DNA of 42,538 nt, from the IMG/VR virus record IMGVR_UViG_3300046009_004474, positions 1 through 42,538 of that record; one strand, written 5' to 3'. Source of the stretch: a virus. This document shows, one piece after another, positions 4,901-42,538 of the stretch. The notes beneath the pieces were generated by a model. It ran no database searches and was not told where the DNA came from. It saw only the letters and a list, made by a program, of their open reading frames with translations. The translations under genes were made by a program, and so were the position numbers. How positions within the stretch are numbered: position 1 is the first letter of the stretch; every line of letters starts with the position of its first letter.

Positions 4901-5407
4901 ATGTGTGGTCCTTTATTAATACCTCTTGTTACCTTAGCTATTTCAGCTGCTGGTACAGCTATGTCTTATTCACAGCAAGCAAGTCAAGCTAAGAAACAAG
5001 AGCAAGCTATAAGAGCAGATCAAGAAAACAGATATGCTGCTATGGCTGAAAAGAACAATCAAACAGTAAGGCAGGAAGCAGGAGCATTACTTGAGGTACG
5101 ACGACAGCAACAACGTGAGGCAGCATCCGCAAGGGTAGCCTCAGGTGAGGCTGGGGTTACTGGGGTAAGTATGGATTCAATTCTCAATGACACCTTTATG
5201 CAAGCTGGGTTTGAATCCTCAAGAATCATTGCAGACACCCAAGCACGACTTAAGCAGAACGAGTTGGAAGCTAAGGGTATAGCCTCACAATCCGAGTCAG
5301 CATACAACTCTATTAATAGACCTAGTGCTGTAGCAGCAGGTTTACAGATAGCTGGTTCAGCACTAAAAGCCTATAACTCCTACTCTCAATCCGGTGGAGG
5401 GAAGTAA
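4901..5407 (+). CDS. Internal virion protein B (gp14-like)
   Basis: This 168-residue protein (T7 gp14 is 196) begins with a short hydrophobic stretch (residues 4-22, LLIPLVTLAISAAGTA) followed by a long A/Q/E-rich helical region (about 25-125). That is the usual architecture of the gp14 ejection protein, which is proposed to form the outer-membrane pore of the DNA-ejection channel. The motif GEAGVTGVSMDSILND is typical of this family. The stop overlaps the next start (TAATG), so it is coupled to the gp15-like gene. Confidence 0.87.
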   Translation: MCGPLLIPLVTLAISAAGTAMSYSQQASQAKKQEQAIRADQENRYAAMAEKNNQTVRQEAGALLEVRRQQQREAASARVASGEAGVTGVSMDSILNDTFMQAGFESSRIIADTQARLKQNELEAKGIASQSESAYNSINRPSAVAAGLQIAGSALKAYNSYSQSGGGK

Positions 5408-7545
5408 TGCAAGAGCAATCGAGAAGAGTAGGTAACGTCCCCAGGCTACAATCAAGCATAGGTTCTAATCAGGTGGGTGTGTTTGCTAACCCAGTGAACA
5501 CCTATGTAGAACCTAGAAACAACCAAGGAATGTTAGCCATAGGTGATGCACTGGGTAAATTAGTCCCAGGTGTCACTGAGGCTTTTAACAATGTCTTGGA
5601 GAAGCAAGCACAGGCTGATTACGCTAAGGGTTACATGGCTGGAAACTTAGGGGACCAACCCAATCCAGAAGCTAGTGGTTCTGAGTTTGCAGGTTACAGT
5701 AAAGCAAGAGCCATTAAGCATGGCCTTGAGTTATCCCAAAGTATTGAGCAAGAAGCAGCACAGATCAGACCTGAGGATAGTAAGACATGGGGTGACTATA
5801 AGTCTCCTATAGATGCTCTTCAAGGTTTAATCTCGGCAAGGGTTCATGAAGCAACAGCAGGTATTGACCCTCAGTATGCGATTTATACAGCAGCTGCTAT
5901 TGATCGGATTACACCAAGTCTGTTTGATACAAAGCATAAGGAAATCAGGGATTACACTGTAGGTAACTTAACAGACTCTGTAGCGAGCATCGCTCAGACA
6001 CATCTTCAAGAGTTCGTTAAGAATAACCCTTTGTCAATGGAAGTTCGTAACTATGACCCTGCTCAGTTAAGAAAGTTATATGACCAGCATCTAACATTGT
6101 TGACTCAAGACGGTCTAATCAACAAGAAGCAAGCCTCAGAGTTCTTAGGGAATGTTTGGGGTGATGTTGCTGTTCAGCAGAAGATTCCTGAGTTGTTAAA
6201 CTTCATGGACTATAAGGACGAATCAGGTATATCCATAGGTATGACCTCAGCTGGTGATAGGTTGAGGGCAGGACAAGCAGCTGCTGCTGATGAACGTAAG
6301 AAAACTTTGAGTGCTGATATGGCGAACAATAAGGCGTTCTATCGTAAGTTAGCAGATGAAGGTAAGTTCACCTTAGAGTTTGCAAGGGAATTAGTTAATG
6401 ACCCTGTAGCTAGTACCTATCTAACTAATGATGAGTTAGAGAATCTACTCTATACATCACGAGTGGCTGGACTACAGGAAGAAACCAAGGTAGTTAACAC
6501 AGATGCTCTTCATGCCGGTCAAGGTTGGTTGATTCCAGACGGTTCTGATAAGAACAAAGCAACAGACCTTTACATGGAACAGCTTGCAGAAACCGCTAGT
6601 GCCACCTCAGGAGACCCCAGTGAAGGACTTAAAGCTCAACTCAAGGGTCTAAACATTAACGGTGCTATGGTGTATGACAAGTTCAAATCTGTCATTAACA
6701 ATGGTGCTGCCATTATCCCTGATGATAAGAACGCTCAGGCAGCTGAGGGTTTCAAAGCTGGTGTCTCTCTGTTCAATCAGATGATGCAAATGAACCCAGC
6801 GTTAGCCTTTCGTCATGCCACAAGTAAAGACGCTAGGGATAACATCTTACGTTTCAATGCTGCTACAGCTGCTGGTAAAACCGATGAAGAAGCTTGGGCT
6901 TGGGTTAAACAGATTGCCAATAAACCCATCATGGAACAAGAGGTATTCTTTAAGTCAGACCTCCCAGGGAAGATCAGGGAAACCGTTGATGGACACTTCA
7001 AGCAAGGCTTTTGGGATAAAGCTTTCAATGGCGAGGGTGTTGATAATGGTGGTGCTAGGTACGATGTTGTTATGAAAATGGCTATGCACTATGGCGAACT
7101 TGGTCTATCACCTGATAAAGCACTTGAGGCTTCCTTAGGTTTCTTTGAGGCTAACTATGTCAATGTTCGTGGTACATCTGTCTACACAGGTGGAACACAG
7201 TTACCAGAAGACTTCGAGAAGTTTAGTGATTGGTACATTGAGACTAAGCTAAAGAAAGACCCTGAGAAATACTATGTGGTTCCTACAAACACCAAGGGTG
7301 CTTATGCAATCATGGGTGACTTTGGGTGGACCAATGACCCACTCTTTGTCTTCAATGATGCGTACAAGGAGTTTACTCTTAAGGATGCACCTACGGTTGA
7401 CCAGTTCAATCAACTTCAACAAGACAGAGCAACACAGAAGATTGAGTACATGAAACGGTTGGATGCTGTTGAAAGCAAGGCTAAGGAGTTAGAACAACAA
7501 CGAATGAACCGCGCACCAACAACACCATTCTCTATAGTTCAATAG
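5407..7545 (+). CDS. Internal virion protein C (gp15-like)
   Basis: This 712-residue, mainly helical protein is close in length to T7 gp15 (747) and lies between gp14-like and gp16-like genes. The opening with R-V-G-N-V-P-R-L-Q and the early segment LGKLVPGVTEAFNNVLEKQA, then YAKGYMAG, are typical of the family. Its expected role is the periplasmic tube of the ejectosome that carries genome and gp16 into the cell. The start overlaps the gp14-like stop by one base. Confidence 0.88.
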   Translation: MQEQSRRVGNVPRLQSSIGSNQVGVFANPVNTYVEPRNNQGMLAIGDALGKLVPGVTEAFNNVLEKQAQADYAKGYMAGNLGDQPNPEASGSEFAGYSKARAIKHGLELSQSIEQEAAQIRPEDSKTWGDYKSPIDALQGLISARVHEATAGIDPQYAIYTAAAIDRITPSLFDTKHKEIRDYTVGNLTDSVASIAQTHLQEFVKNNPLSMEVRNYDPAQLRKLYDQHLTLLTQDGLINKKQASEFLGNVWGDVAVQQKIPELLNFMDYKDESGISIGMTSAGDRLRAGQAAAADERKKTLSADMANNKAFYRKLADEGKFTLEFARELVNDPVASTYLTNDELENLLYTSRVAGLQEETKVVNTDALHAGQGWLIPDGSDKNKATDLYMEQLAETASATSGDPSEGLKAQLKGLNINGAMVYDKFKSVINNGAAIIPDDKNAQAAEGFKAGVSLFNQMMQMNPALAFRHATSKDARDNILRFNAATAAGKTDEEAWAWVKQIANKPIMEQEVFFKSDLPGKIRETVDGHFKQGFWDKAFNGEGVDNGGARYDVVMKMAMHYGELGLSPDKALEASLGFFEANYVNVRGTSVYTGGTQLPEDFEKFSDWYIETKLKKDPEKYYVVPTNTKGAYAIMGDFGWTNDPLFVFNDAYKEFTLKDAPTVDQFNQLQQDRATQKIEYMKRLDAVESKAKELEQQRMNRAPTTPFSIVQ

Positions 7546-14174: not shown

Positions 14175-14204
14175 GTAACGTTAAAACATTTAGGATTGAT
14201 AACA

Positions 14205-14564
14205 ATGACAGACCATGAAATTGAAAAAGAAATCATTGAAAAAGGCTTAACAGCGCCGCGTGTAACGCCTGCTGATATTGAGGCGAATATTAAAGAAGAA
14301 CACTACTTCACTGCTGGTGATGCGCTTGTTCATGTGTATCAAGGCGGTCCAGCTTGGCAAGCAACGTCAACAGCAGTTGATCTACTGACTTTTTGTGTGC
14401 TGGTTTTAAACAACGGCTTTACTGTGACCGGCGAGTCAGCCTGTGCAAGTCCTGAAAATTTTGATGCAGAAATCGGCAGAAAGATTGCTCGCAGTAATGC
14501 GGTGCAAAAAATTTGGCCGTTGATGGGTTATGAGTTAAAGCAAGGGTTATATAAACGAGATTAA
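14205..14564 (+). CDS. N4 gp49 / Sf6 gp66-family protein inserted between the terminase genes
   Basis: This 119-residue protein begins at ATG 14205, with AGGATT upstream. The pattern I-x-x-x-H-Y-F-T-A-x-D (KEEHYFTAGDALVH), then LTFCVLVLNNGFTVTGESAC, ending in Y-x-L-K-Q-G-L-Y-K-R, is characteristic of the Phage_gp49_66 family. That family is small, common in phages and prophages and of unknown function. Codon choice (GCG, CGC, GGC) differs from the neighbours, where GCT, AGA and GGT dominate, and the gene splits the normally adjacent TerS and TerL. This suggests a recent acquisition as a moron. Confidence 0.82.
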   Translation: MTDHEIEKEIIEKGLTAPRVTPADIEANIKEEHYFTAGDALVHVYQGGPAWQATSTAVDLLTFCVLVLNNGFTVTGESACASPENFDAEIGRKIARSNAVQKIWPLMGYELKQGLYKRD

Positions 14565-16278: not shown

Positions 16279-16299
16279 TTTTAAAACCCTGACCCGAAG
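16279..16299 (+). promoter_or_regulatory. Putative phage RNA polymerase promoter A (spike unit)
   Basis: TTTTAAAACCCT (16279-16290), then GACCCGAA, then G at 16299 as the inferred start of transcription. It is one of six copies of the element in which a G always lies nine bases after CCCT. It resembles the upstream half of T3 and gh-1 promoters (A-C-C-C-T-C-A-C). It serves the 41-residue ORF and the tailspike. Confidence 0.78.
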
Positions 16300-16313
16300 G
16301 GGAAAGGAAAGAA

Positions 16314-16552
16314 CCTTAGGATACTACCTTAGGTAATACCTTAGGTGTTACTCAAGGTGAACCTAAGGTTACTCCTTAGGTTTGACCTTAGGATACAGAC
16401 CTTAGGTTTGTTAGTTAATGTTATTACTAAATAATAGTAATCCTAAGGTAATACCTAAAGAGATACCTCATGTCAGACCTTGGGAGTTACCTTAGGTCTT
16501 AACCTTGGGAGTTACCTTAGGTATGACACAAGTCTCTTTAGGGTTCCTTAGG
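16314..16552. repeat. Array of CCTWAGG heptamers
   Basis: The 311-base stretch between TerL and the next ORF contains eleven copies of CCTTAGG or its complement CCTAAGG within 239 bases, plus CCTTGGG and CCTAAAG variants. There is no ORF. T7 carries arrays of CCTAAAG just inside its terminal repeats, and this array follows the terminase gene as the T7 right-end array does. A role in replication or packaging near the end is possible. An untranslated leader for the spike unit is an alternative. Confidence 0.8.
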
Positions 16553-16798: not shown

Positions 16799-19789
16799 AT
16801 GAGAATAGATACGGTGGCTACTAAGCCGACTCCAAGTCAGTTCGTAGGTAGATATATTGTAACAGATGAAGACCCCTCAGGGCTAGTGACCTATACGAAT
16901 ACAGCTGGGGAAGTAATCAAGGATGACATAGCTGATATTGAGTCAATGGAAGATTTTACCTTAGCTGGTGGTGTAGGTGTTCACACAGGTCCGGTTAGGA
17001 TTGACGGGGTTCTATATTGGTCTGATGGTACACAACTAGCAGCCAGTGGCGGGACTACATTACCAACAGTTTCTTACCCAAACCTACTAGAACCCGTCGA
17101 TTTTTACGGCGCACAAATCACTGATTATTTTGTTAGCAAATCGGATGGTAAAACCTACTTATTAGGCCGTTGCGATGATTCCAACTATGTCACTAATCTT
17201 GCGGTAGCCTGTAACAATCAAAGCGTTTACAGGTGGGAACGTAACAGCAGAACACCAGGTGTTACACCATCAGCACCAGTTTTGTTACGCAGTTTCAGTG
17301 CTGAGGCTTTATTTGTTAAACAGGGACCATTCTATTATCACGACCATGATTTGCTTGTTGTGCAAACTGCCAACACAGCTGGTTCTGATACTGCTACAAC
17401 AGCTTATCAATTATGGTTTAGTTGGGACCAGGGTGAAACCTGGATTCGTTACGACTTAGGTAATCGCTGGGCGGGTGGTGCTACTAAAGTCGGCACTATT
17501 CAAATGTTGAATAAGCAAACGCTGTCTGTGTTCAACATGCCCACAACAGGCCAAAAAGCGATTTTCTTTGGATGGTATAACACCGAAGGAACAGCTAACT
17601 TCGAAGAGATTCAGATTGTTGCCAGTTTCGACCGTGGGCAAACATTCAAAACACAATACGCTTGGAACTTGACTGCTACCAGCGACCTGAATAACCGGGT
17701 TCGTCACATTCATTTCTGTCAGTACAACAAATACAACGGCTGTTTATATGTCGGTTTTGGTGACGGTAAAGTCGATGCTACTACCGATAGTAACGGTGTG
17801 CTGTATGTCAACAAGTTCGGTATTCTTGAAGTTGACATGACTCAGTATGCCGGGTTTCCTGCTACGCCTGATTTGTATCTAAATGATTCTGCATTTAACA
17901 GTGGCGCATTTAAAGCATTGATTGGAAATCAAATATATCGTGCTGTGCAACTTGCTATTGATAGCACGGGTAAAATGTATTACGGGGCAGATCAGGTATC
18001 TAACCAAGACGAGCCAACCAAGTACAGCGGTTTTTATAGCTTTTCCAAGAACTTTGCGGGCCATACTAAATTAGGCGGCGATCTACCTGCTTGGTACGAC
18101 GAAGCCTGGAACAGTCATGCAATGGATGACGGTACGGTTATTTTCACAAGTTCACCGGCGATTGATGTTAATCGCGGCACAGTCACGATTTCAGCCGTAA
18201 ACGCAACAACAGATGAAATAACCCTAACATTTGACGTAACAAAAGGACGTAGAGAGATAGCTCAGGGTGAATGTATTTGGCTAACGGGTACGGGCGCTCC
18301 TGGTGGTACTGTCATTACATCCGGCGCGGCTGTCGCGTATTACTGGCTTATTAAAACTGGCACTAATACGGCAAAACTGGCAATCAGTCCGAAACATGCA
18401 GAAAAAGGCATAGCGGTTGATTTGACCAATACCACAGCGGGCGCAACCGTAAACTTTATGGAAGCCAAAGATATTAGCATTTATGCCAGCACTGACGGTG
18501 CTAATGCCTATCGTATTGGTTTGCACAGATTGAGTTCGACAGCGGAAGGTGTGAACATTCAAGGTATTTTCGACCTGAATAATGAGCTATATCTGACAAC
18601 ATCAGGCGGCGCTGCTACTAACGCGCGTAAATCCGCACGGGCAACCTCAGTATCAAGGTTTAGTAACTTAGTGCCTGGACAAGTACCCACACCTGTCGTA
18701 CATCCGACTTATTTTATAGCCACTACTGGTACAAATGTTGGCTCTACAGAGGCATTAAAAGGTGGTTTTTATCCCTGCACAGCAATGGCAGACCCTAACT
18801 TTTTGTTAAGAGCATCCCCGGCAACCCAGGTCGGTTGTGGTTGTCGTGTGCAGATAGCAGCAGGCACTTACACAACACCAAGAACAACGCTTCGCGCGGA
18901 CAATCCTATTACACTAGATTTGCGAGCCTGTTCTTTCGGTACACCTGTGCAAGTGTGGGGCGCTGGTAAAGACCTAACAATATGGGAGCATGATACAGCG
19001 GCGATTTATCACATTCAGTCTACTGTTCGTGCGGCTGGTGGTTCTACGGCTCTCAACCTAGAGTTTTACAACCTACACCTAAATAGCTTAGCTAATGCTG
19101 CCACGACTACAGAGCGAATCATTAGGCACGATGCCGAAAACAATTACATGAAGTTCTATAACGTGCGCATTGGTGATGGTAGCGGTAACTTCCACCATAT
19201 TAACGGCGGCAATAATCAGGTGTCGCTATTGCAGGGCACAGAGGTTATACCAAGCCAAACAGGCACAAGTGCATCGGCTTTTTATAACCGGACTGGCATC
19301 AGCTACGCATTGGAAATTAAAGGCGCTGTTATTGAGAAAGGATACAAAGGCATTTTGTCTAATGATGTATTCACACAGCCTGTAATATGGGACATTGACC
19401 ATGCTGCATTCCATCGGTTCGGTAATCGTGGGATTGATATAACTGTTGCATTGCCATTAACTGCAAACTCAAACATTACTAACACTATTATCGCCAGTGA
19501 TGCTGTTGGCTCAAATTTAGCGGTTAGTGATGCTGGAAGTGGGTTTGATTGGAATGACGGGCAAGTTAATAACAATGCAATATGGACTGAGTTCGGTACT
19601 AAGGTCAGTCCTGCAAGTGTTGCTAGTGCAAGTGATGCTTCGGTTGCAAGCTATGCCTCTCTACAGGTAGTACCTGGTGGAAAGCACACAGTTGCTACTG
19701 ATGCAACAGCCTCAGTGTTAAACGGACGGTCAGCAAATCTAGTGTCATTTGGCGGCGAGCTGACTGTCAAAAACATCGGACCATTCTAG
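16799..19789 (+). CDS. Tailspike / receptor-binding protein with Asp-box and beta-helix-like regions
   Basis: This 996-residue protein starts with a strong ribosome site (AAGGAGA). Residues 1-85 look like a virion-anchoring head. From about 90 the sequence resembles a beta-propeller with sialidase-type Asp boxes: FSWDQGETW (about 206-214), ASFDRGQTF (about 275-283) and the weaker ASTDGANAYR (about 564-573). The C-terminal third (VQIAAGTYTTPRTTLRADNP, LNLEFYNLHLNSLANA, VIWDIDHAAFHRFGNRGIDI) has the repeating pattern of a right-handed beta-helix, as in polysaccharide-degrading spikes. From about base 17050 the DNA becomes richer in GGC, GCG and CGC codons than the surrounding phage genes, so the receptor-binding part looks transferred. 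No catalytic residues can be assigned with confidence. Confidence 0.82.
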   Translation: MRIDTVATKPTPSQFVGRYIVTDEDPSGLVTYTNTAGEVIKDDIADIESMEDFTLAGGVGVHTGPVRIDGVLYWSDGTQLAASGGTTLPTVSYPNLLEPVDFYGAQITDYFVSKSDGKTYLLGRCDDSNYVTNLAVACNNQSVYRWERNSRTPGVTPSAPVLLRSFSAEALFVKQGPFYYHDHDLLVVQTANTAGSDTATTAYQLWFSWDQGETWIRYDLGNRWAGGATKVGTIQMLNKQTLSVFNMPTTGQKAIFFGWYNTEGTANFEEIQIVASFDRGQTFKTQYAWNLTATSDLNNRVRHIHFCQYNKYNGCLYVGFGDGKVDATTDSNGVLYVNKFGILEVDMTQYAGFPATPDLYLNDSAFNSGAFKALIGNQIYRAVQLAIDSTGKMYYGADQVSNQDEPTKYSGFYSFSKNFAGHTKLGGDLPAWYDEAWNSHAMDDGTVIFTSSPAIDVNRGTVTISAVNATTDEITLTFDVTKGRREIAQGECIWLTGTGAPGGTVITSGAAVAYYWLIKTGTNTAKLAISPKHAEKGIAVDLTNTTAGATVNFMEAKDISIYASTDGANAYRIGLHRLSSTAEGVNIQGIFDLNNELYLTTSGGAATNARKSARATSVSRFSNLVPGQVPTPVVHPTYFIATTGTNVGSTEALKGGFYPCTAMADPNFLLRASPATQVGCGCRVQIAAGTYTTPRTTLRADNPITLDLRACSFGTPVQVWGAGKDLTIWEHDTAAIYHIQSTVRAAGGSTALNLEFYNLHLNSLANAATTTERIIRHDAENNYMKFYNVRIGDGSGNFHHINGGNNQVSLLQGTEVIPSQTGTSASAFYNRTGISYALEIKGAVIEKGYKGILSNDVFTQPVIWDIDHAAFHRFGNRGIDITVALPLTANSNITNTIIASDAVGSNLAVSDAGSGFDWNDGQVNNNAIWTEFGTKVSPASVASASDASVASYASLQVVPGGKHTVATDATASVLNGRSANLVSFGGELTVKNIGPF

Positions 19790-19875
19790 TGTGGTGTTTA
19801 GGTGTGACCTTGGGTTGCTTGATTTTTGTTAGAAAAATTTGAAAGCCTATCTGATAGTAAGCAGCGCAGCAATCC

Positions 19876-19950
19876 CCCCTTGGGCCTCCTTTGGTTCTAC
19901 CTGAGGGTGGTGGCTGATGCTGCCAGTGTGGAAGGGACTCACCCAAGGGG
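19876..19950. repeat. Long-range 9-bp inverted repeat enclosing about 57 bases
   Basis: CCCCTTGGG (19876-19884) is the exact reverse complement of CCCAAGGGG (19942-19950). Short helices can form inside (CCTC with GAGG, TGGC with GCCA). No T tract follows, so a simple terminator is unlikely. It could be a structured RNA or a feature of the genome end. Confidence 0.5.
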
Positions 19951-20021
19951 CACACTAAGTAGTAAGTGATTGATTTACTTAGTTTTGCACCTGATATGGG
20001 ATCAGCTGGTTGTAGTAAATG

Positions 20022-20064
20022 AACCACCTCGAGGTTGCTTTGAGTGATCTTGAGGTGGTTTTTT
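20022..20064 (+). terminator. Rho-independent terminator ending the late region
   Basis: AACCACCTC (20022-20030) pairs with GAGGTGGTT (20052-20060) and runs straight into a T tract. It separates the spike unit from the early region and is the expected end of late transcription. Confidence 0.9.
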
Positions 20065-20144
20065 ATGTTATAATATAACATCACACTATTCATTGTTCTC
20101 TGTTTGTTCTTGTTTTTTGGTTTTATCGGTTTCTGCATTAATTA

Positions 20145-20194
20145 AACACTGTATCTAGTGTTCCACCAAACGATTCACCACTATATCTAGTGTT
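20145..20194. repeat. Two palindromic ATCTAGTGTT elements
   Basis: AACACT-GTATCT-AGTGTT (20145-20162) is a perfect 6-bp inverted repeat around a 6-base spacer. A second copy, CACT-ATATCT-AGTG followed by TT (20179-20194), lies 32 bases downstream and runs into the palindrome GTGTTAACAC (20190-20199). The spacing of about three helical turns and the shared AGTGTT half-site (also in the operator at 21921) fit protein-binding sites, but no binding protein is shown. Confidence 0.45.
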
Positions 20195-20200
20195 AACACA

Positions 20201-20320
20201 CCCAAAGTAACACCTGATGCTTTACCCAAAGTAACACCTGATGCTTTACCTAAAGTAACACCTGATGCTTTACCTTGGGTAACACCTGATGCTTTACCTT
20301 GGGTAACACCTGATGCTTTA
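20201..20320. repeat. Five 24-bp direct tandem repeats
   Basis: Units start at 20201, 20225, 20249, 20273 and 20297. The last 17 bases of each unit (GTAACACCTGATGCTTTA, allowing one base at the edge) are invariant, while the first six change stepwise: CCCAAA, CCCAAA, CCTAAA, CCTTGG, CCTTGG. The array lies between the late terminator and the first early promoter. Iteron-like replication elements or T7-style end-proximal repeats are the obvious candidates. The open frame on the opposite strand is only the repeat read through. Confidence 0.9.
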
Positions 20321-20580
20321 CCCATGAAGCAAAAGTGCATCAAATGATCTACCTATGAAGCACACCCAAGGCCACACCAAAAGTCACCCATTAAACCAAC
20401 GTAGACGCTCATCACGCTCGACCTGATACAACACAGGTAGGGTAGCCAGGGTTGGACACTGGGTAAGCCTTAAATGCTTGTATGATAACTCTAGGATTGC
20501 ATCTATATTGATGACACTGGGTTACATTGTGTGGACCTTGGATAGCACTGGTTACACCTTAAGCTTGATTAAATTTATTG

Positions 20581-20609
20581 TTGACAAACTGAAACAATCG
20601 GCGGATAGT
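20581..20609 (+). promoter_or_regulatory. Host sigma70-type early promoter
   Basis: TTGACA (20581-20586), a 17-base spacer and GATAGT (20604-20609). It is the first strong host promoter before the early ORFs at 20666 and 20814, and corresponds in position to the T7 early A promoters. Confidence 0.75.
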
Positions 20610-20665
20610 TCGCACCAAGCCAGCAAACAAGGCGAAACATCTAGCAACTAACAAGGGGAATAACA

Positions 20666-20803
20666 ATGACCACACAACAATTAAAAGTAAGATTGCTCGT
20701 TATAGCCAACCAAGGTCTATCAACAGCAAACCAAGGGAATCCGTTTTGGACTAAATCCCAAGCTATGCAAGCAATTAATAATAGTAGATTGATTAGTAAA
20801 TAA
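20666..20803 (+). CDS. 45-residue early protein
   Basis: ATG at 20666 is preceded by a good ribosome site (AAGGGGAATAAC). The product is basic, with the repeated motif TANQGNPFWTKSQAMQAINN. It lies about 55 bases downstream of the early promoter and 10 bases upstream of the next ORF, as the first gene of the early operon. No family is recognised; small basic early proteins in T7-like phages often target host enzymes, but nothing in the sequence shows this. Confidence 0.65.
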   Translation: MTTQQLKVRLLVIANQGLSTANQGNPFWTKSQAMQAINNSRLISK

Positions 20804-21136: not shown

Positions 21137-21646
21137 ATGAACACTCAAAACACAACAACAGCACGTCTTTATGTCGGTACATACGCGAAATACAACAATG
21201 GTTCGATAGGTGGTGAATGGGTAGACCTGGAAGACTTTGCTGATGCAACAGAGTTCTATGATTATTGCCATAAACTACATAGTGACGAAGAAGACCCAGA
21301 GTTTATGTTCCAAGACTTCGAAGGATTCCCTAAAGACCTCTATAGTGAATGCGGTAACGTGGAGGCTATTTATGAGTATCTTGACTTTGTGAATGATAGT
21401 CATCTAGATCAAGAGATAATAGACTCCGGTCTTGATCTAGGGATTCCACTTGATAAAATCGAAGAAGCCTATTACGGTTCATTTGATAACGATACCGACC
21501 TTGCATATGAGTACATAGATTCCACAGGTTTACTTCACGGCGTACCTGAATCAATCACTAACTATTTCGATTATGAAGCTTTTGGTTGTGATCTCTCTAT
21601 GGACTTTATAGAGTCCGATGGTCATTACTTTTTAGCTAACTGGTAG
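21137..21646 (+). CDS. ardA: ArdA-type antirestriction protein
   Basis: This 169-residue, very acidic protein opens with ARLYVGTYAKYNNGSIGGEW, the signature of ArdA (R-I-Y-V-G-T-Y-x-K-Y-N-x-G-S-x-x-G-x-W). The D/E-rich body and the usual ArdA length of about 165-170 residues support the call. ArdA is an elongated DNA mimic that occupies type I restriction-modification enzymes. It is expressed from its own host-type promoter at the leading side of the early region, the functional slot held in T7 by Ocr (gp0.3), an unrelated DNA mimic. ArdA is otherwise typical of conjugative plasmids and transposons. Confidence 0.93.
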   Translation: MNTQNTTTARLYVGTYAKYNNGSIGGEWVDLEDFADATEFYDYCHKLHSDEEDPEFMFQDFEGFPKDLYSECGNVEAIYEYLDFVNDSHLDQEIIDSGLDLGIPLDKIEEAYYGSFDNDTDLAYEYIDSTGLLHGVPESITNYFDYEAFGCDLSMDFIESDGHYFLANW

Positions 21647-21865: not shown

Positions 21866-21920
21866 ACAGTTACAACAAAAACTGTTAATCAACTCATATT
21901 AATCTATTTTTAATTATCAT

Positions 21921-21959
21921 AGTGTTGACTTCATGTTACAGTGGTCTAAAGTCAACACT
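21921..21959 (+). promoter_or_regulatory. Promoter embedded in a 10-bp inverted repeat (probable operator)
   Basis: AGTGTTGACT (21921-21930) and AGTCAACACT (21950-21959) are perfect reverse complements 19 bases apart. The left arm contains the -35 box TTGACT (21925-21930). A -10-like TAAAGT (21947-21952) follows at 16 bases and overlaps the right arm. A protein bound to both arms would block RNA polymerase. The next gene encodes a winged-helix regulator, so autoregulation is the natural reading. Confidence 0.8.
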
Positions 21960-21986
21960 CTAATAATTCAAAAGGGGAGTCATCCA

Positions 21987-22319
21987 GTGTATAACCTTAT
22001 CCAGATTCTAAAGACATTTAGAGACATTAATCCCGATGCCACGGTGGCAGCTCTTCTATTATTCTGTCTGATTAAAAGAGACGGGAACACACACGTATCC
22101 GACCTAATACAAAACAGTGGTCTAAACAAAACAACAGTCAGTAGAAACATTGATATATTAACTGCTAGAGGCAGAGGCGCTAAGCAAGGATTAGGACTCA
22201 TACAAGACATGGAAGACCCTGTAGACAGACGTTACAAGGTAGTAACATTCACTGAAAAAGGCAAAACAATACACGATTCCCTTTTGCAAAACCTAGGAAA
22301 GTCCCGTGTCTCTCATTAA
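21987..22319 (+). CDS. MarR-like winged-helix regulator, candidate lysogeny regulator
   Basis: The chosen start is GTG 21987 because AAAGGGGAG lies seven bases upstream; an in-frame ATG at 21933 would begin inside the operator. The 110-residue product has a winged-helix layout: HVSDLIQNSGLNKTTVSRNI is the helix-turn-helix (about residues 37-56), followed by a basic wing ending in DPVDRRYKVVTFTEKGKTIH, typical of MarR-type proteins (D-x-R-x-x-x-x-x-L-T-x-x-G). It overlaps the integrase start by 14 bases, so the two are probably co-transcribed and coupled. It may act as repressor or as directionality factor. No classical CI/Cro or Xis gene is seen elsewhere. Confidence 0.8.
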   Translation: MYNLIQILKTFRDINPDATVAALLLFCLIKRDGNTHVSDLIQNSGLNKTTVSRNIDILTARGRGAKQGLGLIQDMEDPVDRRYKVVTFTEKGKTIHDSLLQNLGKSRVSH

Positions 22320-23364
22320 GAAATCAAATAGTCCTTACTGGTGTTACGACATAAAGCTCTCACCAGATCAAGCCAAGCGCCTTGGGTATAGTTCACCCAG
22401 GTTTCGTGGTTCAACCAAGACCACCAACAAACAGGAAGCCCAGTCTGTTGAAGCATCAATCAGAATGTCCATTCTAGCGGGTCTATACACGCCAGGAAGG
22501 CCCGTGCGGGACGCTATGGGTATTACCCTACGTGATGCCCTTGGACGCTGCTTAGTGGAGCTGTGGAAAGACCACAAGAGCTATAAAAGTTTCTATCTGG
22601 TGAGCGTCCGTGCTATTGATAAGGACTCGATAAGTAGTTACCAAATAGGGAAAGTTGATTCTAATTTAATCAATGATTGGATTAACCTAAAGTTGACCCA
22701 AGGAAACAGTAAGTCAACCATAAACCAAAAACTAGGATTGATAAAGAACGCTATAGACCGAGCGTCAAACGTTTGGGGTCTCGAAGTTCAACATGTAGAC
22801 TGGTCATCATTAAAGCTTAAGAAAGCAACCAAGAGCCATTCCGTGTGGTTCACAGAAGAGATGGAACAACAGATTTTTAATAGACTGGCTGAGTTGGGCC
22901 GTCAAGACATGATAGATTTGTTTACTGTCCTAGCCGATGTCGGGGCTAGATTCAGCTCAATTATTAATTTACATAAAAATGATGTGGATTTAACAGGAAG
23001 AACCGTTACACTACGAGACACAAAGAATGGTGATGATATAACCTTACCTCTCACATCAAGAGCAGCTGAGGTTTTCTCTCGCCGTATCCATAATGAATAC
23101 CCTTTCCACGATCTAACCTATTCAGCTGCTAGACAGTGCTGGGATAGACTCAGAGACCACTTCGGATGGCCCAGTGGGGAAGGCTATAAGATTCACGCAC
23201 TAAGACACACCTGTGGTACTCGTCTAGCCCAAGCTGGGGTGGACATCAGGGTTATCCAGAAGTGGCTTGGTCATCGTGATATACGCCAAACAGCTCGCTA
23301 TACACAGGTTATAGATGAGCAGTTGGTATCTGCAATGTATAAATTAGAGGGAAATAATGACTGA
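22306..23364 (+). CDS. int: Tyrosine-family phage integrase
   Basis: This 352-residue protein carries the full catalytic set of tyrosine recombinases: R215 (DVGARFSSIINL), K240 (DTKNGDD), H297 and R300 (HALRHTCGTRLAQAG), H323 (LGHRDI) and Y332 (ARYTQV). The N-terminal part (1-60) fits an arm-binding domain and 75-170 a core-binding SAM-like domain. The start GTG lies inside the regulator gene. Downstream, a tRNA-Thr 3' end flanked by repeats forms a probable attP. Integrases are exceptional among T7-like phages but are known in some marine podoviruses that integrate into tRNA genes. Confidence 0.96.
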   Translation: MSLIKKSNSPYWCYDIKLSPDQAKRLGYSSPRFRGSTKTTNKQEAQSVEASIRMSILAGLYTPGRPVRDAMGITLRDALGRCLVELWKDHKSYKSFYLVSVRAIDKDSISSYQIGKVDSNLINDWINLKLTQGNSKSTINQKLGLIKNAIDRASNVWGLEVQHVDWSSLKLKKATKSHSVWFTEEMEQQIFNRLAELGRQDMIDLFTVLADVGARFSSIINLHKNDVDLTGRTVTLRDTKNGDDITLPLTSRAAEVFSRRIHNEYPFHDLTYSAARQCWDRLRDHFGWPSGEGYKIHALRHTCGTRLAQAGVDIRVIQKWLGHRDIRQTARYTQVIDEQLVSAMYKLEGNND

Positions 23365-23599
23365 AACCTTATACGGACTTAATGATCTCCAAAGCGCACC
23401 TGAGGGGTGGTACTGGTACAAACACGATGGGTGGGGTTATGAAGTCCCTGTGGTAATCAGCGTTACACAACACAAAGACCGCACCTTGTTAAGCCTACCG
23501 TACCCTGATGAATACTCAATAATTAAAGGTGAACACCCAAACCATTTACTTGATATAAAACTGATCGGGCCATTAGAAGTTCCGACAGTTATCATCTGA
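23357..23599 (+). CDS. 80-residue hypothetical protein downstream of the integrase
   Basis: ATG overlaps the integrase 3' end by 8 bases, with GAGGG upstream, so translation is likely coupled. The product has an aromatic N-terminal half (APEGWYWYKHDGWGYEVPVV) and a beta-strand-rich remainder without transmembrane segments. No family is recognised. Its size and position beside int could suit an excisionase, but it lacks the basic helix-turn-helix expected of Xis proteins, so this is not claimed. Confidence 0.65.
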   Translation: MTETLYGLNDLQSAPEGWYWYKHDGWGYEVPVVISVTQHKDRTLLSLPYPDEYSIIKGEHPNHLLDIKLIGPLEVPTVII

Positions 23600-23602
23600 T
23601 CG

Positions 23603-23623
23603 TTTTAAAACCCTTACCCTAAG
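23603..23623 (+). promoter_or_regulatory. Putative phage RNA polymerase promoter F (variant)
   Basis: TTTTAAAACCCT (23603-23614), TACCCTAA, then G at 23623. It differs from the consensus in having T instead of G after CCCT. It is the first phage-type promoter of the map and would transcribe through the attachment region toward the RNA polymerase gene. Confidence 0.65.
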
Positions 23624-23625
23624 CA

Positions 23626-23662
23626 GGTGGTGATACACTGAGTCCTAACAGTGTGTCCCACC
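23626..23662 (+). other. Strong hairpin three bases after promoter F
   Basis: GGTGG-t-GATACACTG (23626-23640) pairs with CAGTGTGTCCCACC (23649-23662), a 14-bp stem with one bulged T and an eight-base loop. The inferred transcript start is at 23623, so the RNA would begin with this hairpin. There is no T tract, so it may be a stabilising 5' structure, an RNase III site or part of the attachment region. Confidence 0.7.
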
Positions 23663-23747
23663 TTAACTAACAGCACATGATTACGGATTCTAAGTAGATG
23701 ATTTATAATGGAATAAGAAAAACAGTTGTAAGAACTTTAGGCTCTAA

Positions 23748-23797
23748 GCTGATTTGTAATCAGCCGGTCGCGGGTTCGAGTCCCATCACCAGCTCCA
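23748..23797 (+). other. attP: Probable attP core: 3' part of tRNA-Thr(UGU)
   Basis: The segment can be read as a tRNA 3' half. The anticodon stem GCTGA/TCAGC (23748-23752, 23760-23764) carries loop TTTGTAA with anticodon TGT. The variable loop CGGTC, a T arm with TTCGAGT, the acceptor strand CACCAGC, discriminator T and CCA (ending 23797) follow. No D arm or 5' acceptor strand (expected GCTGGTG) is present upstream, so it is not a complete gene. Two T-stem pairs are imperfect. A tRNA 3' fragment next to an integrase gene is the classic form of a phage attachment core: integration would rebuild the host tRNA gene. Confidence 0.88.
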
Positions 23798-23823
23798 AAT
23801 ATATCAAAGGCTTAGGGAAACCT

Positions 23824-23952
23824 AGGACACACTCAAAGGGACACAAAGACACACCCACTGTGTCCCTATCAAACAAAACAAGGTCTTTACAGGCTAAGTT
23901 TTACTCAAAGAAAAGACTGTATCAGGACACACTGAGTTACTTAATGTGTCCC
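23824..23952. repeat. Cluster of GGACACACT / GTGTCCC elements beside the tRNA core (arm-type site candidates)
   Basis: AGGACACACT occurs at 23824-23833 and again exactly 100 bases later (23924-23933). GGGACAC lies at 23838-23844 and the inverted form GTGTCCC at 23860-23866 and 23946-23952; another GTGTCCC is on the other side of the core at 23653-23659. Direct and inverted short repeats flanking a crossover core are the layout of integrase arm sites. Isolated GTGTCCC copies also exist elsewhere (for example 28554-28560), so the motif alone is not specific. Confidence 0.65.
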
Positions 23953-23968
23953 TTGAAACAGCTCTTAA

Positions 23969-23989
23969 TTTTAAAACCCTGACCCGAAG
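23969..23989 (+). promoter_or_regulatory. Putative phage RNA polymerase promoter B (upstream of its own gene)
   Basis: TTTTAAAACCCT (23969-23980), GACCCGAA, start G at 23989. It is 159 bases upstream of the RNA polymerase start codon, which implies positive feedback once some polymerase is made. Confidence 0.78.
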
Positions 23990-24003
23990 GGCAGAGGATA
24001 CAA

Positions 24004-24088
24004 ACCTTAGGATACTACCTTAGGTCTAACCTTAGGTGTTACCCAAGGTCAATCATTTAGTCCACCTTAAGTCTAACCTTAAGTACCT
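24004..24088. repeat. CCTTAGG / CCTTAAG repeats in the RNA polymerase leader
   Basis: Three CCTTAGG copies and two CCTTAAG copies follow promoter B. The first part (23966-24049) is nearly the same as 16276-16358 behind promoter A. The second part shares the 22-base block ACCTTAAGTCTAACC-TTAAGTAC with the leader behind promoter C. No ORF lies here. The 548 bases from 23600 to 24147 thus hold promoter F, a hairpin, the attachment region, promoter B and these repeats. Confidence 0.75.
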
Positions 24089-24147
24089 TCCCAAGAAGGA
24101 CCGGACTATTACGTTCTATCAGTTGACAATAAGAAAAGGTAATCAAC

Positions 24148-26574
24148 ATGAATAAAGATGCTTTAGAAAGACAGTTGGAATTAGAAGAGTATTCCGTAGA
24201 GTTAGGTATAGCTCGCTACCGTAAGGAACGTCTTGAGTATCACCTTAAGTCACCCTCTGAGCAGAAAGAAGCTGACTCTCAGCCTGGGAATATATTAATC
24301 AAGACTTACTTATTACCTTTGTCAGAGACCATCCAGGCATGGAAGGACGACATCACTGTAGGTAAAGCTAGAAAACAAGCATTGATGATTAAGTTCCTCA
24401 ATCAACTTGATTCAGACACCATAGCTTTCATCACGCTAAGGGGTGTCATTAACTGTCTCCATAAGTCAGTAACCTTACAAGAAGCTTGTGGTCACATCCT
24501 GACGCATCTAGTTGAGGAGATTAACTTTAGGAAACTTAGAGATGCCGCCCCAGGTTACGCTGTGGTGCTGGAGAATAAGTTCAAGAAGTCAACCAGTGCT
24601 ACACACAGGAAGAACGTAACAAGAGTAGCTATGGAGAACGCTGAGGTTAAAACCTTGTCTATTGACCTGTCAGAACGTCAGCGTCTTACTAATCTGTTGA
24701 TCGGGTTTGTCATTGAGTCAACTGGCTTAGTGGTGTTGGAAACAAGGAAGAGAGGGAAGAATGATTCAGCTGTAATTGTGTCGCCAACACCGAGAGTCCT
24801 AGAGTGGTTAGAATCAGCACACTCTAAGTGCGAACTAAGATCACCCTTTCTGTTACCTATGTTAGTTAAGCCTAGACCTTGGGTGTCACCTAAAGACGGT
24901 GGATACTTAACTGGTAAGATCAAACTATCATTAATCAAATCCCACGATGAAGACTACATAGGGGAGTTAGATAACTGGGATATGCCTGAGGTTTACAAAG
25001 CTGTCAACGCTATACAAGAGACACCTTGGAGAATCAATAAGAACGTACTCAATACTATGCAAAGTGTGTGGGAGGGAAATCTTACGCTTGGAAAGTTACC
25101 AATGCGGGACTGTCTTGAGTTACCAACTAAACCATTCGACATAGATACCAATGAAGAAGCTAAGAAAGAATGGAAACAAAGAGCAGCTGTAGTTCACGAA
25201 CAAAACAACAAGTTGGTATCCAAACGTATTGCTCTAAGTCAGAAGCTTTGGGTTGCCAACAAGTTTAAAGATGAGGAAGTAATCTACTATCCTCATGTCC
25301 TTGACTGGAGGGGTCGTGTCTATCCAGCAGCGGGTGTTGGTACAGTGTGTCCTCAAGGTGATGACACAGGGAAAGCACTTTTAGAGTTCGCTGAGGGTAA
25401 GACCTTAGGTGAAGACGGTGCTTACTGGTTAGCGTGTCACATTGCTGGATTGTTTGGTGTTGATAAGGTTCCCTTTGATGATCGTGTTCAATGGGTAGAA
25501 GATCATTCAACTATCCTGTCAATGTGCGCCTTAGACCCACTTGAGTACACCTTCTGGACCAAAGCAGATAAACCTTATCAAGCCTTAGCTGCTATCTATG
25601 AGTGGGAAGGCTATCAGACCCAAGGTATCAACTTTGTGTCTCACCTTCCTATTGCAATGGATGGCTCTAACAATGGCGCACAGCATCTGTCAGCTATGGG
25701 TAGAGACAGCAGAGCAACAGTTAATCTGGTTCCTTGTGAGAAACCTCAGGACATCTATATGGATGTGGCTAATGAGGTAGCTAAGATTGTCGATGAGAAA
25801 GCAGCTGAGGGGGACGCTATGGCTGAACTTTGGGCAGGTAAGATCACTAGGTCGATCGCTAAGAGACCCGTGATGACACTTTGTTATGGCGCTACTGTCA
25901 ATGGTATGTCGAATCAGATCATAGAGGAAGTGAAGAAAGCTAAGGCTGATGGTAAACCTATCTTACTGACTGATGAGATTGTTCCTGCTTGTAATTGGTT
26001 AGCTGGTGTCATGTATCCTGCTATTGGAACCATCACAACAGCAGCGGTAACCATCATGGACTGGCTTAAGAACACAGCTAAGGTTGCAGCTTCAAACGAC
26101 CTACCAGTCCATTGGGAGACACCCGTAGGATTCCCTGTGCTTCAACACTACAGGACATTAAACCTTAAGGTTGTCGACGCTGTTATTGCTGGGTGTCGCA
26201 TACAGGTGTCCATAGGTGAAGAGACAAGAGAACTTAACAGAAGAAGACAGGCAGCAGGTATCAGTCCTAACTTTGTTCATTCATTAGACTCAGCTCATCT
26301 AATGAAAACTGTCAATGCAATGGTTGATAGAGGTGTCACCAGTTTTGCTATGATTCATGATTCATATGGAACACATGCAACTGATACGGATTTACTTAAT
26401 GTTGTACTCAGAGAAGAGTTCATTAAGTTGTATTCTGATGATGTACTTGAGGAGTTCAGACAGCAAATCATTAAGCAGTTGCCTGATGAGTTGGCCGAAC
26501 AGATCAAGGAGATCCCGCCTAAAGGTGCGCTGGATATATCTGTAATCAAAGATTCGCAGTATTTCTTTGCCTGA
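24148..26574 (+). CDS. Single-subunit DNA-directed RNA polymerase (T7 gp1-like)
   Basis: This 808-residue enzyme (T7 883) transcribes middle and late phage genes. Hallmarks are DWRGRVYPAAG (T7 DWRGRVYA), the palm motif AMDGSNNGAQHLSAMGRD (around 505, with the first catalytic Asp), RSIAKRPVMTLCYGATVNG (the O-helix with Lys and Tyr, near 570-588), PNFVHSLDSAHLMKTV and IHDSYGTH (second catalytic Asp near 737). The C-terminus YFFA mirrors the T7 FAFA foot. The specificity-loop region precedes PNFVHS and differs from T7, fitting a distinct promoter. It is the first gene downstream of the attachment site and is followed by a strong terminator. Confidence 0.97.
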   Translation: MNKDALERQLELEEYSVELGIARYRKERLEYHLKSPSEQKEADSQPGNILIKTYLLPLSETIQAWKDDITVGKARKQALMIKFLNQLDSDTIAFITLRGVINCLHKSVTLQEACGHILTHLVEEINFRKLRDAAPGYAVVLENKFKKSTSATHRKNVTRVAMENAEVKTLSIDLSERQRLTNLLIGFVIESTGLVVLETRKRGKNDSAVIVSPTPRVLEWLESAHSKCELRSPFLLPMLVKPRPWVSPKDGGYLTGKIKLSLIKSHDEDYIGELDNWDMPEVYKAVNAIQETPWRINKNVLNTMQSVWEGNLTLGKLPMRDCLELPTKPFDIDTNEEAKKEWKQRAAVVHEQNNKLVSKRIALSQKLWVANKFKDEEVIYYPHVLDWRGRVYPAAGVGTVCPQGDDTGKALLEFAEGKTLGEDGAYWLACHIAGLFGVDKVPFDDRVQWVEDHSTILSMCALDPLEYTFWTKADKPYQALAAIYEWEGYQTQGINFVSHLPIAMDGSNNGAQHLSAMGRDSRATVNLVPCEKPQDIYMDVANEVAKIVDEKAAEGDAMAELWAGKITRSIAKRPVMTLCYGATVNGMSNQIIEEVKKAKADGKPILLTDEIVPACNWLAGVMYPAIGTITTAAVTIMDWLKNTAKVAASNDLPVHWETPVGFPVLQHYRTLNLKVVDAVIAGCRIQVSIGEETRELNRRRQAAGISPNFVHSLDSAHLMKTVNAMVDRGVTSFAMIHDSYGTHATDTDLLNVVLREEFIKLYSDDVLEEFRQQIIKQLPDELAEQIKEIPPKGALDISVIKDSQYFFA

Positions 26575-27390: not shown

Positions 27391-27460
27391 AACAGCAGTA
27401 ATCGTTATAGCAGCAACGCTGTTCACAATCAGAATCTTTATGGGAGACCTTGATGGTTAG
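27383..27460 (+). CDS. 25-residue hydrophobic mini-protein
   Basis: ATG 27383 overlaps the methyltransferase stop and has AGGAGAAAC upstream. The product, [20 protein letters not shown] and a short acidic tail, is a single hydrophobic helix. Its stop overlaps the start of the pentapeptide gene by eight bases, so it is embedded in a coupled chain of genes. It may be a small membrane protein or serve only to couple translation. Confidence 0.5.
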
Positions 27461-27989
27461 TATAAAACATAGGTTGACAGGCGAGAACCTATTCACGCTG
27501 TACACCGAAGGTAGCACTTTAAAAGGCGCTGTTGAAGCTTCGGTTAGTATGGGTGCTAACCTTAGGGATGCTGACCTTAGGGGTGCTAACCTTGGGGGTG
27601 CTAACCTTGGGGGTGCTAACCTTGGGTGTGCTAACCTTAGGGGTGCTGACCTTGGGGGTGCTGACCTTGGGGGTGCTAACCTTGGGGGTGCTAACCTTAG
27701 GGGTGCTGACCTTGGGGGTGCTTACCTTGGGGGTGCTTACCTTAGGGGTGCTGACCTTAGGTGTCATGGTGATATGCGCTACATCTTCACCATACAGCTA
27801 GATATGTGGCCCATAGGGTTCACCAAAACAACCCTGCAAATCGGTTGTCAGAGACATTCAATAGATTCTTGGCGAAACTTCACTGATATAGAAATTAACA
27901 GGATGGAACCCGATGCCCTTGCATGGTGGAAACGCTGGAAGGTTCCCTTGTTTTGCATCATTGATGAACGACTAAAGGATGCACCATGA
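27453..27989 (+). CDS. Pentapeptide-repeat protein
   Basis: The chosen start is ATG 27453 (a TTG three bases upstream is less likely). The 178-residue product has an N-terminal strand region (1-33), 14 pentapeptide repeats of type A-(N/D/Y)-L-(G/R)-G (about 34-103) forming a right-handed beta-helix, and a conserved-looking C-terminal domain ([20 protein letters not shown], then WWKRWK). Known pentapeptide proteins such as Qnr/MfpA mimic DNA and protect gyrase, but repeat number and surface here do not prove that. The repeat DNA (27554-27763) is 14 near-identical 15-base units and may expand or contract. Its 3' end overlaps the next ORF (ATGA). Confidence 0.88.
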
Positions 27990-39994: not shown

Positions 39995-40189
39995 ATGTTA
40001 ACCCTAAGTCAAACCACAGGTAAGCTCATTGTCACAGCTGAGGATTTAATCCAGCTGTTAGATGAACAGATACCACACAGATGTCCAACAGCTGATATGT
40101 CTGAAAGAGAGATATGGATGTATGTTGGTTCAAGAAAATTAATTGATGATCTCAAGATACGTTTTGAGGTAAACACTTCACCAACCTAA
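39995..40189 (+). CDS. 64-residue hypothetical protein at the head of the late unit
   Basis: ATG 39995 lies inside the CCTTAAG/CCTAAGT repeat leader and has no convincing ribosome site, so the first residues (MLTLSQTTG) may be an artefact of the repeats. From residue 10 the sequence LIVTAEDLIQLLDEQIPHRC, then SEREIWMYVGSRKLIDDLKI, looks like a real small helical protein. No family is recognised. It is followed by the poly-proline protein and the portal. Confidence 0.6.
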   Translation: MLTLSQTTGKLIVTAEDLIQLLDEQIPHRCPTADMSEREIWMYVGSRKLIDDLKIRFEVNTSPT

Positions 40190-40199
40190 GGAGTTGCTT

Positions 40200-40421
40200 A
40201 TGTGTATGTCAGGAGGAGGCGGAGGATACACACCACCGCCACCACCACCGCCACCCCCACCACCACCTATTCTTGGTAACAAGTCCGATGTTAAAGGTGA
40301 TACCTCAGCTGTAAACAGCTCAACATCAACAACCAAACGTAAGGGTGGTAGAACAGATTTAGTCATCGACTTAACACCAGGGGTCAACTTTGGGACAGGC
40401 TTGTCTATACCTCAGGTGTAA
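40200..40421 (+). CDS. Proline-rich small virion-type protein (gp7.3-like position)
   Basis: ATG 40200 has AAGGAG upstream; an in-frame TTG six bases earlier is ignored. The 73-residue product starts MCMSGGGGGY, followed by an uninterrupted run of 12 prolines, and ends in TDLVIDLTPGVNFGTGLSIP. Proteins with a glycine stretch, poly-proline and a basic then L-T-x-G tail stand just upstream of the portal in many T7-like phages. In T7 this slot holds gp7.3, a tail/ejection component. The CCN repeat (about 40231-40268) is prone to length change. Confidence 0.75.
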   Translation: MCMSGGGGGYTPPPPPPPPPPPPILGNKSDVKGDTSAVNSSTSTTKRKGGRTDLVIDLTPGVNFGTGLSIPQV

Positions 40422-40424
40422 CCT

Positions 40425-41966: not shown

Positions 41967-42147
41967 GAAAACAGAAGAAGTACAAAGCGAACAACCTGAG
42001 GTAACACCTGAGGTAACTCAAGAAGCTTACAACCCGTTGAGCTACGTTGACGATCAACCTGTGATTGACCCAGCGTATCTAGCTCAGGTTCCAGAGGGTT
42101 ATGTTGTCGATGTTGTCAATGGATGTATCCGTGTTCAAGGTGAATAA
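41959..42147 (+). CDS. 62-residue hypothetical protein between portal and scaffold
   Basis: The ATG overlaps the portal stop. The product has an acidic, T/E/P-rich first half (EEVQSEQPEVTPEVTQEA) and a conserved-looking second half (YNPLSYVDDQPVIDPAYLAQ, then VPEGYVVDVVNGCIRV). No family is recognised. Its similarity in composition to the N-terminus of the scaffold, which follows two bases later, suggests an assembly-related role; this is inference. Confidence 0.7.
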   Translation: MAKKTEEVQSEQPEVTPEVTQEAYNPLSYVDDQPVIDPAYLAQVPEGYVVDVVNGCIRVQGE

Positions 42148-42149
42148 TC

Positions 42150-42538
42150 GTGTCTTTAGAGATTAACACCCCAACGGAAGTAGCGCCAGAGAATCACGAT
42201 GCCGACATGGTGGCTAAGTTTGAGCAAGCTCAGGCTGTCATTAGTTCACCAGATGCACCTGAGGTTAAACCAGAGGACAAACCTGCTGATAGACCTGAGT
42301 GGTTGCCTGAGGGTTTCAACTCAGTAGAAGACTTTGTGGCTGACTATAACAACCTAAAGTCTGGTAAGCAGGAACCTGAGGTCAAACCTGAGGACTTACA
42401 AGTTCAAGGTAACGAAGCTCGTTTCCAGAAATACTTTGATGCTTATGCTGAGAACGGTAATCTGTCAGAAGAAGATTATTCAGCGTTAGCACAAGAAGGT
42501 CTACCTAAGGATGTCGTTGATGCGTACATCGAAGGCTC
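42150..42538 (+). CDS. Capsid scaffolding protein, N-terminal part (continues at base 2)
   Basis: The gene starts with GTG at 42150, two bases after the previous stop. The product opens MSLEINTPTEVAPENHDADM and has a long acidic, P/E-rich region with PEWLPEGFNSVEDFVADYNN, a string characteristic of T7-like scaffolds (P-E-W/K-L-P-E-G-F-x-S-x-E-x-F/L). The frame stays open to the window end and continues in frame from base 2 through the duplicated 126 bases. The last three bases of the window do not match the continuation and should not be trusted. Confidence 0.88.
   Translation, partial: MSLEINTPTEVAPENHDADMVAKFEQAQAVISSPDAPEVKPEDKPADRPEWLPEGFNSVEDFVADYNNLKSGKQEPEVKPEDLQVQGNEARFQKYFDAYAENGNLSEEDYSALAQEGLPKDVVDAYIEG

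What the first reader, a model, noticed from the sequence alone, without database searches (positions are those of the whole stretch)
21987..23797. T7-like phage with an integration module: regulator, integrase and tRNA-Thr attP core
Seen: a tyrosine recombinase with all six catalytic residues (R215, K240, H297, R300, H323, Y332) is encoded about 380 bases from a tRNA-Thr(UGU) 3' half ending in CCA, with a winged-helix gene coupled upstream. Known: temperate siphoviruses and a few marine podoviruses use tRNA 3' ends as attP. Inference: this T7-type phage can lysogenise by recombining at a host tRNA-Thr gene, despite carrying its own RNA polymerase and a full lytic gene set.
Basis: partly seen in the sequence, partly recalled or inferred. 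Interest (0 to 1): 0.88.

Follow-up and report, generated by a model that had tools for sequence, protein, structure and literature searches.

The report
Temperate T7-like phage of methanotrophs
A T7-type phage, normally thought of as purely killing, carries an integrase and a 70-base piece of its host's tRNA-Thr gene that fits methane-eating bacteria (Methylococcales), so it very probably can insert itself into their chromosome at that gene; the kind of module is already known, the host group and the details are new.

Summary
Window 21987-23797 holds a MarR-like winged-helix gene, an overlapping tyrosine integrase (all six catalytic residues) and, 382 bases later, the 3' half of a tRNA-Thr(UGU). 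The piece is exact over 51 nt (23747-23797) to tRNA-Thr(UGU) of Methylococcales methanotrophs, and the similarity runs on into the tRNA's terminator (23747-23816, 97%; 92% to 23826 in one genome). An exact 45-mer searched in 84,980 species hit 28 genomes, 27 of them in that order, the other an unplaced gammaproteobacterial MAG. So the host group is inferred and the attP reading is strong. No lysogen of this phage was found among 311 Methylococcales genomes. In related T7-like proviruses the predicted layout is seen directly: a 45-bp and a 52-bp direct repeat of tRNA 3' sequence, with the RNA polymerase gene next to the (in one case intact) tRNA and the integrase at the far end next to the truncated copy. 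The module is the one described in LUZ100-type temperate Autographiviridae: new member of a known kind. Most novel open reading: integration at this spot cuts the phage RNA polymerase gene off from the early host promoters, so integration itself would help silence lysis.

The parts
21907..21973 (.). 25-nt inverted repeat (88% complementary, 17-nt spacer; inner AGTGTTGACTT/AAGTCAACACT perfect) over a sigma70-like promoter (TTGACT-16-TAAAGT, 21925-21952): candidate operator/promoter of the regulator-integrase pair
   Evidence: the only inverted repeat of that quality in the whole window. Promoter match alone is not above chance. Binding inferred.
21987..22319 (+). MarR-like winged-helix regulator (110 aa)
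   Evidence: PF13463, phrog_9665; 31% identical over 96 aa to the LUZ100 MarR-like regulator and 32% over 100 aa to the gene at the same place in Limnohabitans phage YIMV22061; alignment
22306..23364 (+). tyrosine recombinase (integrase), six catalytic residues present
23357..23599 (+). small ORF, 80 aa, overlaps int end by 8 nt; unknown (possible excisionase by position only)
   Evidence: no family
23603..23619 (+). degenerate copy of the phage-promoter-like motif TTTTAAAACCCTGACCC
23652..23658 (-). GGACACA repeat left of the core; candidate integrase arm-type site
   Evidence: 6 of the 12 copies in the window lie in 23600-24147; function inferred
23747..23797 (+). attP core: 3' half of tRNA-Thr(UGU), anticodon-stem 5' strand to CCA
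   Evidence: exact to Methylococcales tRNA-Thr genes
23798..23826 (+). captured start of the host tRNA terminator: ATATATCAAAGGCTTAGG-GAA-ACCTAGG, now a short hairpin without a T run
   Evidence: 97% identity over 23747-23816 and 92% over 84 columns to 23826; hairpin -7.6 kcal/mol against -19.3 and -19.5 in hosts
23825..23951 (.). five GGACACA/TGTGTCC repeats right of the core; candidate arm-type sites
   Evidence: inferred
23969..23985 (+). phage-promoter-like motif TTTTAAAACCCTGACCC between attP and the RNA polymerase gene (others at 16279, 26664, 28520, 39920)
   Evidence: six copies, all + strand and between genes; 26664 and 28520 are followed by GAGGGAGAC
24148..26574 (+). T7-type single-subunit RNA polymerase (808 aa)
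   Evidence: phrog_414 E=1.5e-245, PF00940; 42% to Caulobacter phage S2B

Best explanation
This is a T7-like phage of Methylococcales (type I methanotrophs) with an intact-looking site-specific integration module. The integrase recombines attP (23747-23797, with captured terminator sequence to about 23826) with the host tRNA-Thr(UGU) gene; the phage core restores the tRNA's 3' half, so the host gene stays whole. Because attP lies between int and the RNA polymerase gene, the provirus would be: restored tRNA-Thr, then RNA polymerase and all lytic genes in the same direction, then ArdA, regulator and integrase at the far end beside a truncated tRNA copy. The MarR-like regulator, made together with integrase, probably acts on its own promoter through the inverted repeat and helps hold the RNA polymerase loop off. 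Shown: genes, residues, core match, host group of the match, the same layout with direct repeats in related proviruses. Inferred: recombination in this phage, host, operator, arm sites, lysogeny.
For: Gene families and catalytic residues. Core exact to tRNA-Thr of Methylococcales, in 36 of 311 genomes of the order and in 28 of 84,980 species; similarity goes past the tRNA into its terminator, which a functional tRNA fragment would not need. The same tRNA-Thr gene is used by other elements: second, truncated copies 6 to 87 kb away in several genomes, with integrase-like ORFs beside some. Regulator-integrase-RNA polymerase order in LUZ100, S2B, jiawei, YIMV22061 and in many IMG/VR contigs, often with a tRNA 3' piece between int and RNA polymerase. 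Eleven related records are permuted, RNA polymerase near one end and int near the other; eleven others have int just beside RNA polymerase. Provirus G323: intact tRNA-Met 167-245 upstream of RNA polymerase and a 45-bp repeat of its 3' end after int; G334: 52-bp repeat at both ends.
Against: No provirus or relic of this phage in 311 Methylococcales genomes by RNA polymerase (301 of them), terminase or DNA (bases 40001-42538 not searched). No junction reads available. The regulator half-site was not found near the RNA polymerase gene. T7-like cyanophages with the same parts integrate but gave no stable lysogens (PMC8776855), and LUZ100 gave none either (PMC10134795). No intrinsic terminator was found between attP and the RNA polymerase gene, so a provirus might be leaky.
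Confidence: 0.86

Rival explanations
1. Integration without lysogeny: the module recombines into tRNA-Thr during a lytic infection, as in T7-like cyanophages, but no stable repressed state exists.
For: S-TIP37 and P-SSP7 integrate at tRNA-Leu, and in S-TIP37 this needs int and attP, yet no stable lysogens were found (PMC8776855). No lysogen of this phage among 311 genomes. No terminator between the restored tRNA and the RNA polymerase gene.
Against: This phage has the MarR-like regulator next to int; no repressor homologues were found in those cyanophages. Relatives with the regulator occur as permuted provirus records, some from isolates' genomes (isolate origin read from the record number, my knowledge).
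Confidence: 0.25
2. Vestige: int and attP are left over from a temperate ancestor and no longer work.
For: The captured terminator is shortened and lacks its T run. The T-stem has a C-A mismatch, but so do the host genes.
Against: Int is full length with all catalytic residues, regulator and int frames are open and overlapping, core exact over 51 nt to hosts: no decay.
Confidence: 0.08
3. The tRNA piece serves something else (decoy tRNA fragment, chance host DNA pick-up, or assembly chimera) and is not attP.
For: Phages carry tRNA genes and fragments for other reasons; ARAGORN finds no whole tRNA.
Against: It breaks in the anticodon stem, as att cores do; it sits at the same place as tRNA pieces in relatives and as the direct repeats of proviruses. 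Its flanks are phage sequence with promoter-motif copies on both sides, which speaks against a chimera.
Confidence: 0.04

Closest known systems
Pseudomonas phage LUZ100 (temperate-featured Autographiviridae, PMC10134795)
   Same: MarR-like regulator and integrase as neighbours just upstream of a T7-type RNA polymerase; tRNA sequence in the module; phage promoter directly upstream of the RNA polymerase gene; terminase 61% identical
   Different: LUZ100 carries a tRNA-Leu upstream of int on the other strand and a terminator after int; here a tRNA-Thr half lies after int, codirectional, with no terminator found
Caulobacter phage S2B, Mycobacterium phage jiawei, Limnohabitans phage YIMV22061
   Same: same order regulator, integrase, small gap, RNA polymerase; closest RNA polymerases (42%, 41%, 36%)
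   Different: integrases only 22-28% identical; YIMV22061 has a tRNA-Leu in the gap; no tRNA feature annotated in the other two (their gaps were not searched)
T7-like cyanophages P-SSP7 and S-TIP37 (PMC8776855)
   Same: int followed by a tRNA-derived attP in a T7-like genome; integration shown by PCR, and in S-TIP37 by deletion of int or attP
   Different: tRNA-Leu of cyanobacteria; no repressor homologue found; no stable lysogens
Temperate T7-like pelagiphages (HTVC019P) and Agrobacterium phage Pasto
   Same: T7-like phages with int, reported to lysogenise (as cited in PMC10134795); HTVC019P RNA polymerase 36% identical
   Different: other hosts; primary papers not read here

Membership tests
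Autographiviridae (T7-like podoviruses) | single-subunit RNA polymerase with T7-type replication and structural genes, one coding direction | tested here: met
   RNA polymerase, DNA polymerase A, primase/helicase, exonuclease, terminase, connector, internal virion and tail proteins, all on +
Autographiviridae (T7-like podoviruses) | podovirus particle | not testable with these tools
   no virion
tRNA-targeting tyrosine integrases | catalytic R-K-H-R-H-Y set | tested here: met
tRNA-targeting tyrosine integrases | attP core identical to the 3' part of a host tRNA, near int | tested here: met
   51 nt exact, 382 nt from int
tRNA-targeting tyrosine integrases | attL/attR junctions of this phage in a host genome | tested here: inconclusive
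   none for this phage in 311 Methylococcales genomes; absence among sampled genomes does not show inability. Seen in relatives G323 and G334
Temperate T7-like (LUZ100-type) module | MarR-like regulator next to integrase upstream of RNA polymerase | tested here: met
Temperate T7-like (LUZ100-type) module | regulator sites at the RNA polymerase promoter | tested here: inconclusive
   the half-site AGTGTTGACTT is absent near 23969-24148 at up to 2 mismatches; other repeats there are unassigned
Temperate T7-like (LUZ100-type) module | stable, immune, inducible lysogen | not testable with these tools
   needs a culture; not obtained for LUZ100 either

The most novel reading that the evidence does not exclude
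Integration-coupled switch: the RNA polymerase gene is first expressed by host transcription coming through the regulator-integrase operon; recombination at an attP placed between int and the RNA polymerase gene cuts that path, leaves the polymerase with only its own phage promoter behind a host tRNA gene, and so makes integration itself part of the repression. Excision restores the path.
Probability: 0.35. Interest if true: 0.65.

Novelty: new member of a known kind. Interest (0 to 1): 0.45.

Why it matters
It ties a T7-like phage of unknown host to methane-oxidising bacteria through a 70-base host-derived segment, and gives a testable site for prophages in methanotrophs, whose phages are little described in the papers found here. 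The recurring position of attP between integrase and RNA polymerase in this phage and in related proviruses suggests a simple way in which integration could silence a T7-type lytic programme; the LUZ100 paper says that it is unclear how the polymerase is first activated.

Tried and rejected
Close relatives of the integrase or RNA polymerase in viral contigs from the single sequences: none. The exact tRNA core in other viral contigs: none; one looser match is a whole tRNA-Thr in a tRNA array of a 126-kb contig, unrelated. RNA polymerase hits in two Methylococcales genomes and one other gammaproteobacterium (1025-1034 aa, or split) lie in ordinary host contigs for the two that were read, no prophage. 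Similarity of gene 14196-14564 to Methylococcales DNA was considered as host evidence and dropped: the gene is widespread in phages. Direct repeats at the record ends of nine other permuted relatives: not found, most records are cut at gene ends. One 360-genome draw from the class of the host for integrated relatives with flanks: no T7-like prophage found.

Full report
What is there. The window is a 42,538-base virus record whose first 126 bases recur at 42410-42535, so it is probably a complete genome assembled as a circle. It has a full T7-like gene set on one strand: RNA polymerase, Gp2.5-like protein, RusA-like nuclease, amidase, primase/helicase, DNA polymerase, exonuclease, ribonucleotide reductase, connector, capsid, tail, internal virion protein, tail fibre and terminase. 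Between the early region and the RNA polymerase gene sits the finding: regulator 21987-22319, integrase 22306-23364, a small unknown ORF, then a tRNA-Thr 3' half at 23747-23797.

The core. An exact 45-mer of the tRNA half, scanned over one genome for each of 84,980 species, hit 32 stretches in 28 genomes, all methanotrophs or gammaproteobacterial or proteobacterial MAGs; 27 of the 28 reappear among the 311 genomes of the order to which Methylotuvimicrobium buryatense belongs, the exception being a MAG with only a truncated copy (L005). Identity to whole tRNA-Thr(UGU) genes is 51 nt. It does not stop at the CCA: window 23747-23816 is 97% identical to many of these genomes, and in one, 84 alignment columns to 23826 are 92% identical, covering both arms of the tRNA's terminator hairpin. 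Alignment of the downstream 45 bases beats all of 300 shuffles for the ten best places, the best being Methylomonas sp. WSC-6. Terminator sequence is host chromosomal sequence, not tRNA function, so the phage took this segment from a Methylococcales chromosome. That makes the order the likely host; it remains an inference.

The site is in use. Several of these genomes have a second, truncated copy of the tRNA 3' half 6 to 87 kb from the first (G003, G006, G173, G242), where read starting at the anticodon loop, and integrase-like ORFs lie beside some of them. No provirus of this phage turned up: RNA polymerase, terminase and DNA searches found none.

The module is a known one. LUZ100 has the regulator and integrase next to its RNA polymerase gene and a tRNA-Leu in the module; S2B, jiawei and YIMV22061 have the same order. 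The regulators of LUZ100 and YIMV22061 are 31-32% identical to this one. In IMG/VR relatives found with an RNA polymerase alignment, regulator, integrase and polymerase recur, and many have a tRNA 3' piece between the last two.

Proviruses show the layout. Of 22 related records with an integrase, eleven have it directly beside the polymerase gene, and eleven are permuted, polymerase near one end and integrase near the other. In G323 the polymerase follows an intact tRNA-Met, and a 45-bp copy of that tRNA's 3' end lies at the other end, by the end of int; in G334 a 52-bp tRNA repeat marks both ends. This is what recombination between int and polymerase predicts, with tRNA and polymerase in the same direction, as in the window.

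Control elements. A motif TTTTAAAACCCTGACCC occurs six times (allowing one mismatch), only on the + strand and between genes, twice followed by GAGGGAGAC; by position and by likeness to T7 start sites it is the likely phage promoter, and one copy (23969) lies between attP and the polymerase gene. The single best inverted repeat of the window overlaps the regulator's promoter-like site. GGACACA repeats flank the core, half of all copies in the window lying within 548 bases; chosen after the fact, so only a candidate for arm-type sites.

Mechanism and the open point. After infection host RNA polymerase would transcribe regulator, integrase and, with no terminator found in between, the phage polymerase, which then drives its own promoter. 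The LUZ100 authors propose such read-through for the first polymerase and repression by the MarR-like protein in lysogeny. Integration at this attP would in addition part the polymerase gene from that operon. I found no statement of this in the papers read; the primary paper on temperate T7-like phages cited there was not available, so priority is unknown. Against it: in the provirus the host tRNA promoter reads towards the polymerase gene, and the captured terminator is weak (-7.6 against about -19 kcal/mol, no T run). The provirus could therefore be leaky, as the cyanophage case of integration without lysogeny warns.

Verdict. Observation confirmed, interpretation supported, with a host group and provirus evidence from relatives added. 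Known kind, new member.

Noticed in passing
window 21137-21646: ArdA-type anti-restriction gene in the early region (PF07275).
   Followed up: no
window 16279, 23603, 23969, 26664, 28520, 39920: Six copies of a likely phage RNA polymerase promoter TTTTAAAACCCTGACCC.
   Followed up: partly
window 27450-27989: Pentapeptide-repeat protein encoded by near-perfect 15-base DNA repeats (ACCTTGGGGGTGCTA).
   Followed up: no
window 16313-16514 and 24004-24084: Clusters of ACCTTAGG-type repeats after two of the promoter-like motifs; the 8-mer occurs 21 times on + against 1.5 expected.
   Followed up: no
window 19790-20800: About 1 kb with tandem copies of ACACCTGATGCTTTACC; perhaps the true genome end or an origin.
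   Followed up: no
window 16799-19789 and 5407-7545: 996-aa and 712-aa proteins without any Pfam or PHROG match.
   Followed up: no
L052 4367-7456, L053 1660-4741: Methylococcales genomes hold a chromosomal T7-type RNA polymerase (about 1030 aa, or split) outside any phage; in L052 the gene beside it looks like a CARF-domain (CRISPR-associated) protein, from memory only.
   Followed up: partly
G242, G173, G006, G003, also G135, G196, G101, G223: tRNA-Thr(UGU) of methanotrophs looks like an integration hotspot: second copies of its 3' end lie 6-87 kb away.
   Followed up: partly
window 14196-14564: gp49/66-family gene; some homologues in Pseudomonas and Escherichia phages are annotated as anti-CRISPR.
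   Followed up: partly
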